A stretch of DNA of 6,060 nt from Pseudomonadota bacterium (lineage in GTDB: Bacteria > Pseudomonadota > Gammaproteobacteria > Woeseiales > Woeseiaceae): NCBI GenBank assembly GCA_027295475.1, contig JAPUKV010000016.1, forward strand, positions 1-6,060. The letters are read 5' to 3'. Below are positions 1 through 6,060 of this stretch, piece by piece; the first letter of the stretch is position 1, and each line of letters begins with the position of its first letter. The position numbers and the translations under genes are program-made. Under the pieces are notes generated by a model that saw nothing but the letters and a program-made list of their open reading frames with translations, made no database searches and was not told the origin of the DNA.

Positions 1-329
1 CGAATGCCGATCGCGTCTCCGTAGGACGCGATCACAGGCACGGCTTCACGAATATGTTCGGCCGCGGCGCCGTCCATGACGATACCTGGCCGCGTTTCGA
101 GTCCGTGAATCGACATCTCCGGAGAAATCACGAATGAGCCGCCGCCGAGCCTGGTCATGGCGGCCTGAAAGGATGCCAGCGTTCTCAGGGAAGGGCTCAG
201 GAAAAGCAATGACAGCACTTTGCCGCTGAGTGCCGCAGGCTCCGGCTTCTCGTCGAGCCGGTTCGACAATTCAAGCAGCGCAGAAATCTCCTCTGTTGAA
301 AAGTCGGCAAGGTCGTTAAATGCTTGCAT
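1..329 (-). CDS. argF': N-acylornithine carbamoyltransferase (probably N-succinylornithine type), N-terminal part, cut by window edge
   Basis: The first 110 codons are present; the gene continues past the left edge. The product transfers the carbamoyl group of carbamoyl phosphate to an N-acylated ornithine, giving N-acylcitrulline in the cytoplasm. The carbamoyl-phosphate loop reads SPSLRT (residues 45-50), the form seen in acylornithine enzymes (N-P/S-S-M/L-R-T) rather than the STRTR of ordinary ornithine carbamoyltransferase. The stretch LETRPGIVMDG (77-87) followed by EH (91-92) also matches this subfamily, closest to Bacteroides fragilis SOTCase from memory. Residue 90, the known acyl-specificity position, is Ala. 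Leu51 replaces a usually conserved Arg. Two in-frame ATGs stand in tandem (332 and 329); AAGGA lies 3 bases from the first and 6 from the second, so 329 is preferred. It follows argD by about 20 bases, in the same operon. Confidence 0.88.
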   Translation of the reverse strand, partial: MQAFNDLADFSTEEISALLELSNRLDEKPEPAALSGKVLSLLFLSPSLRTLASFQAAMTRLGGGSFVISPEMSIHGLETRPGIVMDGAAAEHIREAVPVIASYGDAIGI

Positions 330-335
330 CATTAT

Positions 336-352: not shown

Positions 353-1540
353 CTATGTTTTGGGCGCTATGGCGTCGAGTGCTTTCGCCAGGCGCCTGAC
401 ATGCTCCGCTTGCAGCACCAGGGGCGGCAGTAACCTCAGCACGCCGGGGTCGGCGCTGGTGCCGGTCAGTATGTCATGCTGCAGCAGTGCATCACGAATC
501 TCGCCTGCCGGCCTGTCACAGACGAGACCAAGTAAAAGGCCCATGCCCTGGACTGATTGAATCGGCCCGGTGACGCAATGCTCGCGGATCTCGGCTTCCC
601 GTTGTCGAACGTTCGCGAGCAGCCCTTCAGCCTTGATGGTTTCAATGACGGCGATGATAGCGGCCGCTGCGACCGGACCGCCACCGAATGTCGAGCCGAG
701 GCTGCCCTGACCGACAGTCTTCGATATGCGCTCGCTGCAAAGCAGTGCGCCACAGGGGATTCCACCGCCGAGCCCTTTGGCTGTCGTGAGCAGGTCCGGT
801 TCTGCACGATAAGCTTCAATCGCGAAATAATGACCGGAACGGCCCATGCCGCATTGCACTTCGTCGGAAATCAACAGCGCACCGGCCCTTGAAGTGCGCT
901 CGCGTAACGCCGCCACAAAATCGGGTGATAGATCGAAGGCGCCGGCGACACCCTGCACCGGTTCAAAAATCACAGCCGCAACGCTCTCATCGATCATTGA
1001 TTCTGCGGCGGCAACATCATTCCGCGGGATGAAATCAACCGCGAAAGGCGTGTTTGGAAATCCGTACCAGCTGTCGGCGGAGCTCCAGGTCACCGCCCCG
1101 GCTGCCGCCGTGCGGCCGTGGAAACCGTGTGTCAGCGCAAGGATTTTTTGTCGGCCGCCCGTCGCCAGGCAGGCCATGCGCAGGGCGTTCTCGATCGCTT
1201 CAGCACCGCTATTGACGAAGAAGACCCTTGAGAGGTTCTTTGGCGCAATCCCGACAAGCTGTTCCGCTGCAGCTGCCCGCACGTCCAGCGCAACGGCATT
1301 GCTCTGAAATAGCAGCTGCCTGGTCTGTTCACAGATGGCCTGTACCAGGCGTGGATGACCGTGTCCGAGCGCAGCAACGGCATGTCCGCCCCAGAAATCC
1401 AGAATACGCTGACCACTGGTCGTGACCAGATCGCAGCCAGCGGCTTGCGTCGGCATAAATGGCAGCTGCTCGTATACCTGAAGCATAACGGCAGCTTCCC
1501 GTGTGCGCGGATCCTGCAATGTGTCATCGGCTGCACTCAT
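353..1540 (-). CDS. argD: N-acylornithine aminotransferase (class III, PLP-dependent)
   Basis: A complete 395-residue protein of normal family length. It is predicted to convert N-acylglutamate 5-semialdehyde to N-acylornithine with glutamate as amino donor. Seen in the sequence: the phosphate-binding NSGAEA (110-115), HGFHGRT (138-144), the cofactor-contacting DEVQ (226-229), and the PLP lysine K255 in TTAKGLGGG, followed by STFGG. The early motif with WGGHAV (50-55) and ALGHGHP, and VQCGMGRSG (228-236), resemble Bacteroidota ArgD (recalled as YGGHAV and SVQCGYGRSG) more than the E. coli form. The start ATG lies 4 bases after the argC stop; no strong ribosome binding site is visible, so translational coupling is likely. 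The acyl group is not deducible from this protein; the neighbouring argF' suggests succinyl. Related class III enzymes are hard to separate by sequence, but the operon settles the role. Confidence 0.93.
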   Translation of the reverse strand: MSAADDTLQDPRTREAAVMLQVYEQLPFMPTQAAGCDLVTTSGQRILDFWGGHAVAALGHGHPRLVQAICEQTRQLLFQSNAVALDVRAAAAEQLVGIAPKNLSRVFFVNSGAEAIENALRMACLATGGRQKILALTHGFHGRTAAAGAVTWSSADSWYGFPNTPFAVDFIPRNDVAAAESMIDESVAAVIFEPVQGVAGAFDLSPDFVAALRERTSRAGALLISDEVQCGMGRSGHYFAIEAYRAEPDLLTTAKGLGGGIPCGALLCSERISKTVGQGSLGSTFGGGPVAAAAIIAVIETIKAEGLLANVRQREAEIREHCVTGPIQSVQGMGLLLGLVCDRPAGEIRDALLQHDILTGTSADPGVLRLLPPLVLQAEHVRRLAKALDAIAPKT

Positions 1541-1544
1541 CTGT

Positions 1545-2600
1545 TCAGGTCCATGCGGGTGATGCTGCAGTGAGGCCGCTTGATTCAGGCAATGACCAAA
1601 GCCGGTTCATCCATTGCATGGCACCGCCGGCGGCACCTTTAACGAGGTTATCGATTGCGCTCATGACAACAACAGTATCGCCTTCGCAGGTGACGCCGAC
1701 CCTGGCGTCGTTACACGCAATGACGTCTTTCAGACGCGGAATTCCCTCGACAACGTTGACGAACTGACTGTCTGCATAAAATGAACGAAAGGCGTTTTGA
1801 AGCTCGTCCGACGATACCGGGACTTTCATCCTGGCCTGCATGGTCACGTAAATGCCGCGTGCGAAAGGACCCGAATGCGGCACGAAATGCACCGCTGCTT
1901 TCGTCTGACAGCTTGTTTCGATCAACGCTTCGATTTCGGGCACGTGACGGTGCACAAGCGGTTTGTATGCATACAGATTGCTGTGCCGTTCGGGATGATG
2001 CGTGCCGGCCTGCGGACTCCGCCCGGAACCGGTGCTGCCGGTTATGCCGCTGACAAAAAGTTCTTCGGTGACGATGCCTGATTTCAGCAAGGGCACGGCT
2101 GCGAGCAGCACGGCTGTGGCGAAACAGCCCGGATGCGCCGCATGTGGCGCATCCGGGACTGGGGCGTGTTCCGGTACGGCACAGAAAAACTCCGGTATCA
2201 GGGTTGGCGCCGGATGTGGTATTCCGTATACCGCCTCGTATTGTTCCGCACTGGCGTAGCGAAAGTCTGCCGATGAGTCGACGACATGAACATCAAGACC
2301 GCGAGCAGCGGCGCCCTCGAGTGCCGCCGCAATAACAGGCGCTGAAGCGCCGTGCGGCGCAGCGGAGAACAGGGCAAGATTGCCGCCTTTGTCCACTTGC
2401 TCGAGCCAGGTGTCCGGACGGGCGAACGATACGCCGGGGTATGTGCCGGCCAGATTCGGAAAAACGTCCGCGATCGCCTCACCGCCACGGCTAGCGGACA
2501 CCGCCGCGGCCAGCCGGAAGTCCGGGTGTGCTCCAATCAGGCGTAAGAATTCGCCGCCGACATATCCGGTTGCGCCGAGAACGACCGCGGGGATGGTCAT
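1545..2600 (-). CDS. argC: N-acetyl-gamma-glutamyl-phosphate reductase (N-acylglutamyl-phosphate reductase)
   Basis: A complete 351-residue protein. It reduces N-acylglutamyl 5-phosphate with NADPH to the semialdehyde, the third step of arginine synthesis. The N-terminus has the dinucleotide-binding GATGYVG (9-15). The catalytic cysteine is C159 in HPGCFATA; the conserved histidine region is HRHVPEIE (217-224). DNLVKGAAGGAMQWMN (317-332) is the usual C-terminal signature, with a tail about eight residues past the normal PESSGL end. GITGSTGSG (185-193) is like Bacteroidota ArgC, while HHPERHS (201-207) recalls the LysY/ArgC group. The start ATG overlaps the stop of the preceding P-loop gene as ATGA, so the two are translationally coupled. 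A strong coding hairpin sits beside the active-site codon. Confidence 0.96.
   Translation of the reverse strand: MTIPAVVLGATGYVGGEFLRLIGAHPDFRLAAAVSASRGGEAIADVFPNLAGTYPGVSFARPDTWLEQVDKGGNLALFSAAPHGASAPVIAAALEGAAARGLDVHVVDSSADFRYASAEQYEAVYGIPHPAPTLIPEFFCAVPEHAPVPDAPHAAHPGCFATAVLLAAVPLLKSGIVTEELFVSGITGSTGSGRSPQAGTHHPERHSNLYAYKPLVHRHVPEIEALIETSCQTKAAVHFVPHSGPFARGIYVTMQARMKVPVSSDELQNAFRSFYADSQFVNVVEGIPRLKDVIACNDARVGVTCEGDTVVVMSAIDNLVKGAAGGAMQWMNRLWSLPESSGLTAASPAWT
2112..2157. repeat. two tandem inverted repeats inside argC
   Basis: A perfect 12-base inverted repeat, CCCGGATGCGCC at 2128-2139 and GGCGCATCCGGG at 2146-2157, encloses a 6-base loop. Next to it a 6-base inverted repeat, GGCTGT at 2112-2117 and ACAGCC at 2124-2129, also has a 6-base loop and shares two bases with the first. 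The larger repeat encodes PDAPHAAHPG, just before catalytic Cys159 of ArgC. In the argC mRNA the hairpin would be very stable and GC-rich, but no run of U follows, so it does not look like an intrinsic terminator. It may affect pausing or mRNA stability, or be a by-product of codon choice. Confidence 0.75.
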
Positions 2601-3661
2601 AATTTCAAGCGCCCCGTATCGATCAGGAGCTCGGTGATCGAATCGCCAAGCGCGACGCCGTTGCTGAGCGCATTGATCGCGGGCAAAGACAATCGCTCTT
2701 TGATCTGATCGATCCCGACTGCGTTGTCGGTCGCCGGGCCGGTAACGAGGGCCGGCTCGATGTCGAATTGCTCCCTGAGAATTCTTGCGCCGCCCCAGGC
2801 AGCAACCGGATCGTTTGCACAGAGAATGACGGCGGTAAAAGCGTCGCGTATGTCCTCGTCTGCAAGTATTGCTTCAACGCCGTAAGCCCCGAGCAGACCG
2901 TCGCCAAGCTCGATCACGATGACATCGGGTTGAAACCCGGCCAGGCTGCTAAGCAATGTGCGTGTGAGAGCCGGTCCGTTTTCTGGTGTCGTCGTCACGA
3001 CGCCGAGATCGGAGAAGATCATCGAGTGAGCAGCACCGGCGTCCTCCATCGCAAGAATGTCCCGGCGTAAGGAAACGCCGGTCGCTTTGCAGGCCGCGAC
3101 CTTCAGGCCACGGTGACGCAGGCGGCTGACGATTGCGCAGGCGGCCGCCGTCTTGCCGGAATCCATGCAGGTACCGGCAAGCGCTATGACCGGTACACCC
3201 TTTGTGTCTAATTGAGCGTTCTTATCGAGTTCTTTAGCGCCGACTCGCGCTGGCACGCCGATGCGTTCGCCGAGGTAGGGGAAGTGCAGCACAGTGCCAA
3301 GCACTTCGCAGTCGAAAGGCGCACCAACATCGGGATTAGCTGAATCGCACATGCCAAGAACGCCACCGATATTCAGAATCTGAATCGTGGACCCAACTTC
3401 GAGTGCTTCCGGCAAATGACCCGAGTAACCGAGTAGCGCTTTTCGATGTCCGAGTGCGCCGACGACGATATCGCCCTGGTTGACGGTGGCCATTCTGCCG
3501 CTCGTTAACTCAAGCTGGTTGTAACGGGTCTTGTTATTGAGGACGCGCACGGCAATGAGCACGCCTTCCTCACAGGGAATGTCGGCGGATACCCTGAGCT
3601 CGTGGCTCAGATTGCTGTGCTGGGCAACGGAGGCGACTTTATCGACGAAGATGCTACGCAT
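2597..3661 (-). CDS. uncharacterised P-loop protein of the arginine operon (BioD/DUF1611-like)
   Basis: A complete 354-residue protein, not a standard arginine enzyme. The N-terminal half (about 1-155) is rich in Gly and Val and looks beta-stranded, with no signal peptide or membrane segment. The C-terminal half begins with LAGTCMDSGKT (161-171), a deviant P-loop of the GTxxxxGKT kind found in dethiobiotin synthetase (BioD) and related SIMIBI proteins. CKATG (191-195), with a lysine where BioD-like enzymes keep one, follows, then acidic D201, E206 and D207, and VIELGDGLLGAYG (249-261), which recalls the BioD EGAGG loop. I also recall DUF1611 proteins with a similar loop. AAAGGG at 3669-3674 lies 7 bases before the ATG; argG ends 3 bases upstream and the stop overlaps the argC start by 4 bases. 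This coupling implies a role in arginine synthesis. A glutamate N-acyltransferase role is inference only. Confidence 0.85.
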   Translation of the reverse strand: MRSIFVDKVASVAQHSNLSHELRVSADIPCEEGVLIAVRVLNNKTRYNQLELTSGRMATVNQGDIVVGALGHRKALLGYSGHLPEALEVGSTIQILNIGGVLGMCDSANPDVGAPFDCEVLGTVLHFPYLGERIGVPARVGAKELDKNAQLDTKGVPVIALAGTCMDSGKTAAACAIVSRLRHRGLKVAACKATGVSLRRDILAMEDAGAAHSMIFSDLGVVTTTPENGPALTRTLLSSLAGFQPDVIVIELGDGLLGAYGVEAILADEDIRDAFTAVILCANDPVAAWGGARILREQFDIEPALVTGPATDNAVGIDQIKERLSLPAINALSNGVALGDSITELLIDTGRLKL

Positions 3662-3664
3662 AGT

Positions 3665-4885
3665 TCAGCCCTTTCCGGCTGACGCGCCGGCTCGGGTCTG
3701 CAGCGACCCTGACAAAGACAAAATGCGTGCGTATCCGAGTGCGTCGCCGGCGGTCCACTCGCCGGCGGCTTCCCCGTACACGCCTTTCGTAGCGGCAAGC
3801 AGAGAGTATGGCGAGGCGACGCCATCGATAAAGAGACTGCCCGGCCGCAACGTGAAACTAACCTGGCCCGTGACGCGCCGCTGCGATGAGGAGAGTAATG
3901 CCTCGATGTCCCGGCACGCGGCATCCAGCTGCTTACCTTCGTGAATGAGATCGCCGTAGACGGCCGCGACGGTGTCTTTGACACGGGATTGCTGTGCACT
4001 CAAGACGAGTTTCTCAAGTTCACGATGCGCCGTGATCAACGTAAGCGCTGCCGGCGCCTCAAACGCGACACGGCCCTTGGTGCCGAGAACCGTATCGCCG
4101 AGATGAATGCCTCTGCCCACGGCATAGGAACCCCCCAGTATCTCGAGTTTCTCGATCAGAGAAACCGGATCGAGTTTCTCACCGTCCAGCGCCACCGGGA
4201 TGCCGGCGTCGAAGTCGAGCGTGTGACGCGATTCAGGCTTGGGTCTGTCGAACGCGCCGGCCGATAACACCCAGGCTTGCTCAGGCAAAGACCTCTCGGA
4301 AGTCAGCGTTTCCTGACCGCCAATCGTTATGCCCCACAATCCGCGGTTGACCGAGTACGCGGATCCCTGGGCGGGCAGCGGCAGGTCATGATCTTCGAGG
4401 TATTTGAGCTGCTCCTCGCGGACCCAGCTGTTGTCCCTTACCGGCGCAAGAATCTCCAGGCCCGGGTTCAGTGTCCGCAGCGTGACCTCGAAGCGCACCT
4501 GATCGTTGCCGGCCGCCGTGCAGCCATGTGCGACGGTTGCAGCCCCCCTTGCGCTGGCCAGCCCGGCCAGGCGCGCAGCCTGAAGACCGCGCTCTGCGCC
4601 AACACATAAGGGATAAAACTGACCCCGACGCACGTTGCCGGCAATGAGATACCGTAATACCGAGTCGAAAAAGTCTTTTTTGCAATCGAGCAGCACATGT
4701 TCGATCGCACCGAGCCTGAATGCGCGATCCTCGAGGGCCGCTGCAGCCGCGTCGTCAATACCGCCGGTATCGACCGTGGCCGTAATAACGTCGCGTCCGT
4801 AATTCTCTTTCAGCCACGGGACACAAAATGACGTATCCAGACCACCTGAAAAGGCAAGAATGATTGGAGAATTATCGTCGGTCAC
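3665..4885 (-). CDS. argG: argininosuccinate synthase
   Basis: A complete 406-residue protein of usual family length. It condenses citrulline and aspartate using ATP, giving argininosuccinate, AMP and pyrophosphate. The ATP pyrophosphatase motif SGGLDTS lies at 13-19, and the aspartate/citrulline-binding stretch AGNDQVRFE at 125-133. SVNRGLWG (178-185) and the ETLTS segment (192-196) resemble Bacteroidota ArgG as I remember it; there the usual GKGNDQ also reads GAGNDQ. The start is GTG: no ATG lies nearby in frame, and AAGGA stands 8 bases upstream. The gene follows argR by 31 bases with no terminator visible and precedes the P-loop gene by 3 bases. Being first of the enzymes in an operon of early steps fits a single arginine-controlled unit. 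Confidence 0.96.
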   Translation of the reverse strand: MTDDNSPIILAFSGGLDTSFCVPWLKENYGRDVITATVDTGGIDDAAAAALEDRAFRLGAIEHVLLDCKKDFFDSVLRYLIAGNVRRGQFYPLCVGAERGLQAARLAGLASARGAATVAHGCTAAGNDQVRFEVTLRTLNPGLEILAPVRDNSWVREEQLKYLEDHDLPLPAQGSAYSVNRGLWGITIGGQETLTSERSLPEQAWVLSAGAFDRPKPESRHTLDFDAGIPVALDGEKLDPVSLIEKLEILGGSYAVGRGIHLGDTVLGTKGRVAFEAPAALTLITAHRELEKLVLSAQQSRVKDTVAAVYGDLIHEGKQLDAACRDIEALLSSSQRRVTGQVSFTLRPGSLFIDGVASPYSLLAATKGVYGEAAGEWTAGDALGYARILSLSGSLQTRAGASAGKG

Positions 4886-4916: not shown

Positions 4917-5366
4917 TCAACCGCGGGCGGATGCGCGGTCGATTTTCGTAAGAAGATTTCTTTGCGCTGCGGCATTTTTGGTCGCGACTAACACCGTGTC
5001 ATCGCCACCGACGTTGCCGACCATTTCCGGCCAGCCACTCTGGTCCAGTGCCAGCGCGACCCGCTGTGCCGCACCAATGGCCGTCTTTATGACCACGAGA
5101 TTGGGCCCGGCGGTATCTATCTCCCTGAGAAGCCCGGACACCTCGGCCACCTCGTCGCCCTTACCCGGGCCCGGCAGTGCATAGCCCTGAGTTGTCTTGA
5201 GCGCACCCAGTTCCTTCAGGTCACGGCTGACGCTCGATTGCGTGGCGACAAAACCCTGTGAGGTCAGGGCATCCACGAGCGACTGCTGAGTCCCGGCGGG
5301 ACCCAGTTCCAGGATCTGCCGGATGGCTTGCCGTCGGTCTGACTGAATTTCCGGGGAGTTCGGCAT
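4917..5366 (-). CDS. argR: arginine repressor ArgR
   Basis: A 149-residue transcription factor, close to the usual 150-156. The N-terminal winged helix contains SSVSRDLKELG (44-54), the DNA-recognition helix with the family's Ser-Arg pair. The C-terminal hexamerisation and arginine-binding domain shows D108 and GDDT (121-124), matching the GDDT signature of the family. With arginine bound, ArgR represses arginine genes through ARG boxes. A GTG at 5390 would add eight residues, but it lies upstream of the transcription start expected from the -10 at 5394-5399, so the ATG at 5366 is preferred; neither start has a clear ribosome binding site. As first gene before argG it probably represses its own operon. 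E. coli keeps argR apart from the structural genes, so this linkage is worth noting. Confidence 0.93.
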   Translation of the reverse strand: MPNSPEIQSDRRQAIRQILELGPAGTQQSLVDALTSQGFVATQSSVSRDLKELGALKTTQGYALPGPGKGDEVAEVSGLLREIDTAGPNLVVIKTAIGAAQRVALALDQSGWPEMVGNVGGDDTVLVATKNAAAQRNLLTKIDRASARG

Positions 5367-5373
5367 GGTCTGA

Positions 5374-5391
5374 TTCGCATAAATATGCACA
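5374..5391 (-). promoter_or_regulatory. ARG box 1 (ArgR operator)
   Basis: The minus strand reads TGTGCATATTTATGCGAA, which agrees at 15 of 18 positions with the E. coli consensus TNTGAATWWWWATTCANW (consensus from memory). Its core GCATA-AA-TATGC (plus strand, 5377-5388) is a perfect inverted repeat around two bases. It covers the predicted transcription start of argR, a place where bound ArgR would block initiation. Confidence 0.6.
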
Positions 5392-5393
5392 TA

Positions 5394-5422
5394 TAAATAC
5401 CAGAATGCGCATACTCAGTCAA
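5394..5422 (-). promoter_or_regulatory. predicted sigma-70 promoter of the argR-argG operon
   Basis: TTGACT (-35, 5417-5422) and TATTTA (-10, 5394-5399) are 17 bases apart on the minus strand. TGG directly before the -10 gives an extended -10 motif that can offset its weak 3-of-6 match. Initiation would fall near 5386-5387, about 20 bases before the ATG of argR. The two ARG-box-like sites overlap the spacer and the start point. Confidence 0.5.
5400..5417 (-). promoter_or_regulatory. ARG box 2, weaker match
   Basis: The minus strand reads TGAGTATGCGCATTCTGG, built on the perfect palindrome ATGCGCAT (5405-5412). The flanks fit an ARG box partly, but the centre is GCGC instead of A/T-rich. Centre-to-centre distance to box 1 is 26 bases, longer than the roughly 21 typical for paired boxes. 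It fills the spacer between the predicted -35 and -10 of argR. Confidence 0.35.
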
Positions 5423-5460
5423 GCACTTGCGGCTGTTAATATGCGCTGCTTCACACTATC

Positions 5461-5466
5461 AGGGGA
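5461..5466 (+). promoter_or_regulatory. ribosome binding site of the esterase gene
   Basis: AGGGGA stands 7 bases before the GTG at 5474. The in-frame ATGs at 5405 and 5441 have no comparable site, so this site decides the start. Confidence 0.55.
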
Positions 5467-5473
5467 AGCGGCT

Positions 5474-6060
5474 GTGGATACACCGGACACCGTTGAAGTC
5501 GGGGGCAGAGAAAAACCGGACGGCACTGTTATCTGGCTTCACGGCCTGGGTGCCGATGGCCATGATTTCGAGCCGCTCGTGCCCGAGCTTCAGCTGGATG
5601 AATTTGCTGATATCCGCTTCATCTTTCCCCATGCGCCTGTCCGTCCGGTCACGATCAATGGCGGCATTCCGATGCGGGCCTGGTATGACGTCATGAGCCT
5701 CGATCGGTCCGGGCCGCAGGATGAGGCCGGTATTCGTGACAGTGCTGAGACCTTAAGGCGACTGATCGAGCGCGAGCACGATCGGGGAGTCGATTACGAC
5801 CGCATCGTAGTGGCAGGCTTTTCACAGGGCGGCGCCATCGCGATGCATACGGCAATGAGGTTCCCGGAGAAATTGGCCGGTCTGATGGCTTTATCGACCT
5901 GGATGCCTCTCGAAGCGACAATTGACGGGGAAGTCATGCAGAGTCCGGAGTCTCAGCCCCGCGATCTCCTGATCTTGATGGTGCACGGCTCATTCGATCC
6001 GATGCTGCCGATCGCCGCCGGCCAGCACGCCCGGGACATCATGCAGAAGGCAGGTTTCCA
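5474..6060 (+). CDS. carboxylesterase/phospholipase (alpha/beta hydrolase), C-terminus beyond window
   Basis: The first 195 codons are present; the frame is open to the right edge. The product belongs to the bacterial carboxylesterase II/acyl-protein-thioesterase-like family and should hydrolyse short-chain esters in the cytoplasm; no signal peptide is seen. TVIWLHGLGADGHDF (18-32) carries the oxyanion-hole HG. FPHAPVRPVTINGG (51-64) and MRAWYD (67-72) are typical of gamma- and betaproteobacterial members. The nucleophile is S117 in GFSQGG, the catalytic acid D175 in HGSFDPMLP; the expected histidine lies beyond the edge. The GTG start places the first motif about 20 residues in, as is usual. 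The gene is divergent from argR and shares an 83-107 base region, where TAATAT at 5437-5442 could be its -10 but no good -35 was found. A link to arginine is not implied by its family. Confidence 0.9.
   Translation, partial: MDTPDTVEVGGREKPDGTVIWLHGLGADGHDFEPLVPELQLDEFADIRFIFPHAPVRPVTINGGIPMRAWYDVMSLDRSGPQDEAGIRDSAETLRRLIEREHDRGVDYDRIVVAGFSQGGAIAMHTAMRFPEKLAGLMALSTWMPLEATIDGEVMQSPESQPRDLLILMVHGSFDPMLPIAAGQHARDIMQKAGF

What the first reader, a model, noticed from the sequence alone, without database searches (positions are those of the whole stretch)
2597..3661. Unassigned P-loop protein embedded in the arginine operon; candidate for the missing glutamate N-acylation step
The sequence shows a 354-residue protein with a GTxxxxGKT loop (163-171) locked between argG (3-base gap) and argC (ATGA overlap). 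No arginine step I know uses such a protein at this place. No N-acylglutamate synthase is visible in the window. From memory, the DUF1611 P-loop family includes DgcN, reported to N-acetylate D-glutamate. I infer that this relative might acylate L-glutamate, with acetyl-CoA or succinyl-CoA, in place of ArgA or a GNAT enzyme. Other options are an ATP-dependent ligase, a kinase standing in for ArgB, or a regulator.
Basis: partly seen in the sequence, partly recalled or inferred. Interest (0 to 1): 0.75.

Follow-up and report, generated by a model that had tools for sequence, protein, structure and literature searches.

The report
Likely new first arginine-biosynthesis enzyme
An unnamed gene locked inside the arginine operon of a marine-sediment bacterial group most likely makes the first enzyme of the pathway, the one that caps glutamate, with a protein fold not known for this job, filling a gap left by the apparent absence of the usual enzymes.

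Summary
In detail: a 354-residue P-loop protein (here "X") lies between argG (3-base gap) and argC (ATGA overlap) in a Woeseiaceae-type contig. Relatives have the operon argR-argG-X-argC-argD-argF'-argB-argH: every arginine step except N-acylation of glutamate and the final deacylation. X lies between argG and argC in 30 of 31 complete contexts; the exception (G506) is telling: argR-X-argC-argB, i.e. steps 2 and 3 plus X. ArgA is over cut-off in 0 of 26 and ArgJ found in 0 of 26 tested X genomes; in six genomes surveyed for GNATs the only shared cluster is RimI. In 29 of 29 readable knotted carbamoyltransferases two marker residues are succinylornithine-type (all three in 26). The model (pLDDT 94) has a P-loop domain close to DUF1611 proteins, including the acetyltransferase DgcN, but equally close to BioD and CTP synthase; its beta-rich N-terminal domain matched no solved structure. 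A Stigmatella relative passes Pfam's DUF1611 cut-off. X is probably an N-acylglutamate synthase, in Woeseiaceae most likely an N-succinylglutamate synthase. This is inference from context and homology: no activity is shown, the Woeseiaceae records are MAGs, and the window's own genome is not held.

The parts
2597..3661 (-). gene X: 354-aa two-domain P-loop protein, proposed N-acylglutamate (N-succinylglutamate) synthase
   Evidence: ORF; conserved in arg operons; purifying selection
3149..3175 (-). P-loop GTCMDSGKT, residues 163-171 of X; G163, M166, G169, K170, T171 kept in 40 of 40 aligned family members
2618..3199 (-). C-terminal P-loop NTPase-fold domain of X (about residues 155-348)
   Evidence: AF2 model and PDB comparison
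3212..3661 (-). N-terminal beta-rich domain of X (about residues 1-150); no match among solved structures found
2597..2600 (-). ATGA overlap of X stop and argC start (translational coupling likely)
   Evidence: sequence
3662..3664 (.). 3-base spacer between argG stop and X start
   Evidence: sequence
3665..4885 (-). argG, argininosuccinate synthase
   Evidence: TIGR00032 289.9 bits over cut-off 268.2
1545..2600 (-). argC, N-acyl-gamma-glutamyl-phosphate reductase
   Evidence: TIGR01850 289.6 bits over cut-off 233.6
353..1540 (-). argD-like class III aminotransferase (acylornithine aminotransferase)
   Evidence: TIGR00707 E 4e-97, below its cut-off; Aminotran_3
3..332 (-). argF' (first 110 aa), knotted-type acylornithine carbamoyltransferase; the one marker residue visible here is Ala, succinylornithine type
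4917..5390 (-). argR, arginine repressor, first gene of the operon
   Evidence: Arg_repressor and Arg_repressor_C

Best explanation
X is the first enzyme of arginine biosynthesis in these bacteria: it puts an acyl cap on the amino group of L-glutamate, doing the job of ArgA, ArgJ or a GNAT synthase with an unrelated fold. In Woeseiaceae the cap is most likely succinyl (donor succinyl-CoA), so the route would be glutamate -> N-succinylglutamate (X) -> ArgB -> ArgC -> ArgD -> N-succinylornithine -> ArgF' -> N-succinylcitrulline -> desuccinylation by an M20 enzyme encoded elsewhere -> ArgG -> ArgH. By analogy with DgcN, the P-loop domain would bind the CoA thioester (perhaps its ADP part) and the interface with the N-terminal domain the glutamate. 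Shown here: gene order, absence of known synthases in the tested genomes, succinyl-type carbamoyltransferase markers, predicted fold of the C-terminal domain. Inferred: the reaction, the donor, the substrate site, the desuccinylase.
Confidence: 0.7

Rival explanations
1. Same pathway step, other chemistry: X is an ATP-dependent ligase that joins free succinate (or acetate) to L-glutamate through an acyl phosphate, as a BioD- or CTP-synthase-like enzyme would, and does not use a CoA thioester.
For: Complete P-loop and conserved K192, D201, E251; profile hits to BioD (E 1e-4) and structural scores for BioD and CTP synthase tied with DUF1611.
Against: DgcN, the one fold match titled as an acyltransferase, is an N-acetyltransferase by its PDB title; the synthases reviewed in PMC4490483 (abstract and passages) use acetyl-CoA, and ArgJ uses acetylornithine (PMC1382215 passage).
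Confidence: 0.13
2. X is not the synthase but another part of arginine metabolism: a regulator, a channelling partner of ArgC/ArgB, or the missing deacylase.
For: Only guilt by association ties X to step 1; a deacylase gene (argE) is also missing from the operon.
Against: X is as conserved as argG, argB and argF'; M20-family genes are present in 10 of 10 genomes searched, and a P-loop fold is not known to me for deacylation; ArgR is present as regulator; the absence of any known synthase would stay unexplained.
Confidence: 0.1
3. An unrecognised synthase elsewhere (an unusual GNAT) makes N-acylglutamate and X does an unrelated job, e.g. a BioD/MobB-like cofactor function.
For: New synthase types keep being found (PMC4490483 passages); the GNAT survey used one Pfam model and six genomes; MobB is the best Pfam hit of the window protein (E 7e-4, below cut-off).
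Against: No GNAT cluster other than RimI is common to the six; arg linkage of X is kept in deep branches and in G506 with only argR, argC and argB.
Confidence: 0.07

Closest known systems
DUF1611 family / DgcN (D-glutamate N-acetyltransferase; PDB 7xrj, 2obn, 2g0t)
   Same: Similar length (331-345 against 354 residues), P-loop C-terminal domain of the same fold; weak to borderline Pfam PF07755 match, over cut-off in a Stigmatella relative; proposed reaction of the same kind on glutamate.
   Different: Arginine operon instead of a D-glutamate pathway; proposed L-glutamate and succinyl donor; N-terminal domain beta-rich, without a DUF1611_N hit or a match to solved structures.
N-acetylglutamate synthases ArgA, NAGS-kinase fusions, ArgJ, short GNAT types, C-NAGS (CG3035)
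   Same: Proposed pathway position and reaction type.
   Different: No family hit of X to any of them; ArgA and ArgJ not found in tested X genomes; the CG3035 model gave only trace hits, far below cut-off, on three of the GNATs tested.
Bacteroidetes succinyl route (BT3761-type GNAT, SOTCase; PMC7311316 passages)
   Same: Succinyl-type carbamoyltransferase markers (PMC4581275 passage).
   Different: There a GNAT-type gene (recalled as GNAT; the passage calls it over 50% identical to Cabys_1732) is the probable N-succinylglutamate synthase; here X stands in its place.
BioD / MobB / CTP synthase P-loop enzymes
   Same: Fold of the C-terminal domain and P-loop signature.
   Different: Sequence match limited to about 30-95 residues from the P-loop on; extra N-terminal domain; arginine context.

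Membership tests
DUF1611 (PF07755, P-loop domain) | Score over Pfam gathering cut-off | tested here: inconclusive
   Window protein 15.5 bits against 25; clade member from Stigmatella 25.7, Myxococcaceae JPH2 23.2
DUF1611 | C-terminal domain fold as in a solved DUF1611 protein | tested here: met
DUF1611 | N-terminal DUF1611_N domain (that Pfam holds this as a separate model is recalled) | tested here: not met
DgcN | N-acylates glutamate | not testable with these tools
   Needs an assay
DgcN | Gene paired with the racemase DgcA (pairing from PMC10845958 passage and recall) | tested here: not met
   Neighbours of arg-type X are arginine genes in 31 of 31 complete contexts
ArgA (TIGR01890) | Amino-acid kinase-like plus GNAT domain over cut-off | tested here: not met
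   No hit of X at E<=1 in NCBIfam
ArgJ (PF01960) | Pfam ArgJ match | tested here: not met
   No hit of X at E<=1 in Pfam
BioD | Curated match over cut-off and a single P-loop domain of about 220-235 aa | tested here: not met
   Only partial weak relations; 354 aa with an extra domain
MobB | PF03205 / TIGR00176 over cut-off | tested here: not met
   19.9 of 26.6 and 26.5 of 76.2 bits
N-succinylglutamate synthase (functional class) | Found with a succinylornithine-type carbamoyltransferase | tested here: met
   29 of 29 readable argF' next to X at two markers, 26 of 29 at all three; exception: G506 has an ordinary ornithine carbamoyltransferase elsewhere
N-succinylglutamate synthase (functional class) | Catalytic activity with succinyl donor and L-glutamate | not testable with these tools
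   Needs an assay

The most novel reading that the evidence does not exclude
A P-loop (BioD-like) protein family with a so far unmatched beta-rich N-terminal domain is a separately invented N-succinylglutamate synthase, giving a succinylated arginine route outside Bacteroidetes, in Gammaproteobacteria and, by close homologs, in Holophagae, Myxococcota and Verrucomicrobiota; its paralogs beside M20 peptidases, ABC transporters and in a phosphonate-type cluster would be further amino-acid N-acyltransferases.
Probability: 0.5. Interest if true: 0.8.

Novelty: new variant of a known kind. Interest (0 to 1): 0.7.

Why it matters
If true, it fills a gap in arginine biosynthesis for a widespread group of marine-sediment bacteria (Woeseiaceae; abundance recalled) and probably for members of three other phyla, adds a non-GNAT fold to the synthases of N-acylglutamate, and gives a second enzyme for the succinylation of glutamate, whose gene PMC4490483 (2015, passage) called not identified and for which GapMind (PMC7311316, passages) names a probable gene in Bacteroidetes. 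It would also give a function to a large set of proteins now called hypothetical or DUF1611. It is directly testable with one purified protein.

Tried and rejected
Sequence search of X alone against PDB gave nothing useful; the profile A1 gave BioD and MobB around the P-loop and a few weak others. N-domain: PDB sequence profile, Foldseek and VIA-align gave no relation; absence of a family there is not proof. The window's own genome is not held, so no absence could be tested in it. Paper searches: 'DUF1611' alone is in 2 papers of the library, neither about arginine by title; searches for DgcN were swamped by other meanings or empty, with two side mentions read as passages (PMC11747546, PMC10845958); 'N-succinylglutamate synthase' is in 2 of the 20 papers listed (21 held a term); Woeseia with arginine biosynthesis gave 4 papers, none on this by title or abstract start; (succinylated arginine terms) gave 5, of which PMC7311316 and PMC4581275 were seen as passages; Myxococcus with NAGS gave 4 (PMC1382215 passages). 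In these searches I saw no report of this protein as an arginine enzyme; subscription papers are mostly not held and no whole paper was read. L025 (Demequina, 35% over 90 residues): no open frame that looks like an X relative was seen near the match, dropped as chance. Three weak hits (G047, G142, G145, E about 5e-4) were left out of the paralog count, as were eight weak hits in seven genomes (E 6e-8 to 9.5e-4). The M20 clustering used 28 of the 104 places (30 had loci), so 'only DapE in all ten' holds for those 28. X contexts in Holophagae, Myxococcota and Verrucomicrobiota could not be seen: only proteins were available. The output was cut in its middle (part of L092).

Full report
What is there. 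The window's minus strand reads argR (5390-4917), argG (4885-3665), X (3661-2597), argC (2600-1545), argD (1540-353) and the first 110 residues of a carbamoyltransferase (332-3). A divergent carboxylesterase-like gene stands upstream of argR (5408-6058).

X is a real and well-kept gene. dN/dS between window and L001 is 0.131 for X, 0.119 for argG, 0.240 for argC. Over L002-L022 mean identity to the reference is 80.9% for X, 79.3% argG and 61.6% argC (21 loci each), 81.2% argB and 80.2% argF' (20 each), 68.5% argD and 70.6% argH (18 each) (references for argB, argF' and argH came from L001, the others from the window). Two near-identical proteins carry the NCBI label Woeseiaceae bacterium (P0003, P0017), so the window is most likely from that family.

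Operon. In L001, L007 and L011 and by tblastn in the loci long enough, the order is argR-argG-X-argC-argD-argF'-argB-argH. This holds every step of arginine biosynthesis from glutamate except the N-acylation and the deacylation. In 22 Woeseiaceae-type loci (L001-L022), four from the class survey (L085-L088; L085 and L086 with argD-argF'-argB-argH in front of argG) and four more (L204-L207; L204 like L085), X lies after argG and before argC. With G506 that is 30 of 31 complete contexts; two contig-end loci, L023 and L024, agree with the half that can be seen. The exception, G506 (L188), has argR-X-argC-argB in one place and argG-ornithine carbamoyltransferase-argH in another; its argB, argC and ornithine carbamoyltransferase are over their NCBIfam cut-offs. 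There X is the only unassigned member of a cluster whose other enzymes are steps 2 and 3. I take this as the strongest single clue that X is step 1.

Missing synthases. L011's argB is argB over cut-off with no acetyltransferase part. In the class sample ArgA is over cut-off in 157 of 229 genomes. The five genomes there with X in the arg operon (G010, G188, G038, G061, G139) have only matches of E 4.5e-31 to 7e-47; their score rows were not printed except G010's (160.6 bits against 202.85), so I judge the others by E-value. G506 has 133 bits. That makes 0 of 26 (G010 counted once). ArgJ (PF01960): 0 of 21 and 0 of 5 (G506, G188, G038, G061, G139), while the control genomes ring in 10 of 14. Fisher's test for lack of ArgA, 5 of 5 against 67 of 224, gives 0.0028 without correction for relatedness. 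By contrast 12 of 12 genomes that hold only a paralog of X at about 30% identity (E<=2e-15) have ArgA over cut-off.

GNAT synthases. PF00583 found 66 places in six genomes (G001, G006, G010, G014, G018, G188). I read 64 ORFs; of the other two places one is a second match in an ORF already read and one (G188 contig 81) was not fetched. One cluster is in all six: four of its seven members were tested, three are RimI over cut-off and one of the two from G001 is just under it (82.7 of 86.4 bits). The cluster most like the ArgA acetyltransferase domain is in four of six, and the two members tested pass the arsenic-resistance family ArsN2. So no known type of N-acylglutamate synthase explains the group. 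A GNAT missed by that model, or lost to MAG gaps, is not excluded.

Acetyl or succinyl. PMC4581275 (passage) tells acetyl- from succinylornithine carbamoyltransferase by residues 92, 185 and 302 of the X. campestris enzyme: E, N, K against A/S/P/V/Q, P, V/I/E. Aligned to the solved acetyl enzyme, L011 argF' has A, P, V. Over the argF' of X loci that could be read, 29 of 29 have succinyl-type residues at the first two places and 26 of 29 at all three (L007 unread at the third; L087 and L207 have Ala there). The deep branches agree: G061 and G691 P/P/E, G139 V/P/E. In the class sample the acetyl-type residues E/N/K occur in G033 and G186, which lack arg-type X. G174 has a succinyl-type gene (A/P/A) on a 3-kb contig, no X match, and ArgA and ArgJ matches; I suspect a mixed bin but have not shown it. 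G506 has X with an ordinary ornithine carbamoyltransferase, so X may serve either kind of route or the cap may differ there.

Deacylation. Of 28 M20 genes read in ten genomes (104 places), one cluster is in all ten, and its G001 member is DapE over cut-off (TIGR01246, 545.6 bits). DapE removes succinyl from succinyl-diaminopimelate; it or another M20 enzyme could remove it from succinylcitrulline. This is inference.

Spread. Searches with X relatives returned proteins named after Woeseiaceae, other Gammaproteobacteria including Natronospira bacteriovora, Holophagaceae/Holophaga, Chthoniobacterales/Verrucomicrobiota, and Myxococcaceae. In a 31-row tree they form one clade with the arg-operon X proteins (support 87/65, moderate), with the M20-linked (X2) and ABC-linked (X3) paralogs outside (the tool warns of long branches between X2 and X3). 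In the class, arg-type X is in 9 of 369 genomes (E<=1e-50), in the phylum sample in 2 of 398 (E<1e-70). Context outside Pseudomonadota was not visible.

Mechanism. That DgcN N-acetylates D-glutamate and is a DUF1611 protein is recalled; the PDB title calls it an N-acetyltransferase, and papers seen as passages name a D-glutamate N-acetyltransferase (EC 2.3.1.312; PMC11747546) and a DgcN-DgcA route from D- to L-glutamate (PMC10845958). A relative using L-glutamate and an acyl-CoA needs no new chemistry. Residues kept in at least 42 of 43 arg-type X proteins and in 0 of 15 paralogs include K44, Y47, N48, G78, N97, F116, A138, G258, D312 and N313; R133, R200 and Y260 are kept in 43 of 43 and in 3 of 15 paralogs; K170, T171, K192, D201, D218 and E251 are kept in nearly all 58. 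The first set is where I would look for the glutamate and acyl sites. An ATP-dependent ligase cannot be excluded.

Verdict. It is a strong genomic prediction, not a demonstrated activity.

Noticed in passing
L089 5790-6797, L090 8399-9424, L189 8133-9158: A roughly 30%-identical paralog (X2) lies directly behind an M20-like peptidase gene in 3 of 3 such loci. L090's peptidase is nearest to glutamate carboxypeptidase-like models, below cut-off; L189's is M20 over cut-off; L089's was named by eye. A possible acylase/acyltransferase pair.
   Followed up: partly
L091-L096, L098, L100, L101, L191, L208, L209: Another paralog group (X3) is followed by a gene of about 510-580 aa that looks like a one-piece ABC transporter (Pfam-tested only in L096; annotated so in two Paracoccus plasmids; the rest by eye). 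The plasmid annotations call the X3 proteins DUF1611 or dethiobiotin synthase.
   Followed up: partly
L212 (Priestia megaterium plasmid NZ_CP085446.1): A distant relative of X (24% over 97% of P0130) sits in a cluster with ornithine carbamoyltransferase, two ATP-grasp proteins, TPP enzymes, an M20 peptidase and an isocitrate lyase/PEP mutase family gene: it looks like a phosphonate-type natural product cluster, where an amino-acid N-acylation step would make sense.
   Followed up: no
L055-L064 (ten Woeseiaceae-type genomes): Among the M20 genes read, the only cluster in all ten is DapE. DapE may double as the desuccinylase of a succinyl arginine route.
   Followed up: partly
L104 (G174): A succinyl-type carbamoyltransferase on a 3-kb contig in a genome with ArgA and ArgJ matches and no X match: probably a mixed bin, otherwise a counter-example.
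   Followed up: partly
L190 (G541): Genes that look like the arginine succinyltransferase catabolic operon (ast; named by eye, only the argD-like gene was matched) lie next to an X3-type paralog on the other strand.
   Followed up: no
window 5408-6058: A carboxylesterase/phospholipase-like gene (Abhydrolase_2) diverges from argR and keeps that place in 22 of 24 loci L001-L024; the other two begin too near the operon or lack it.
   Followed up: no
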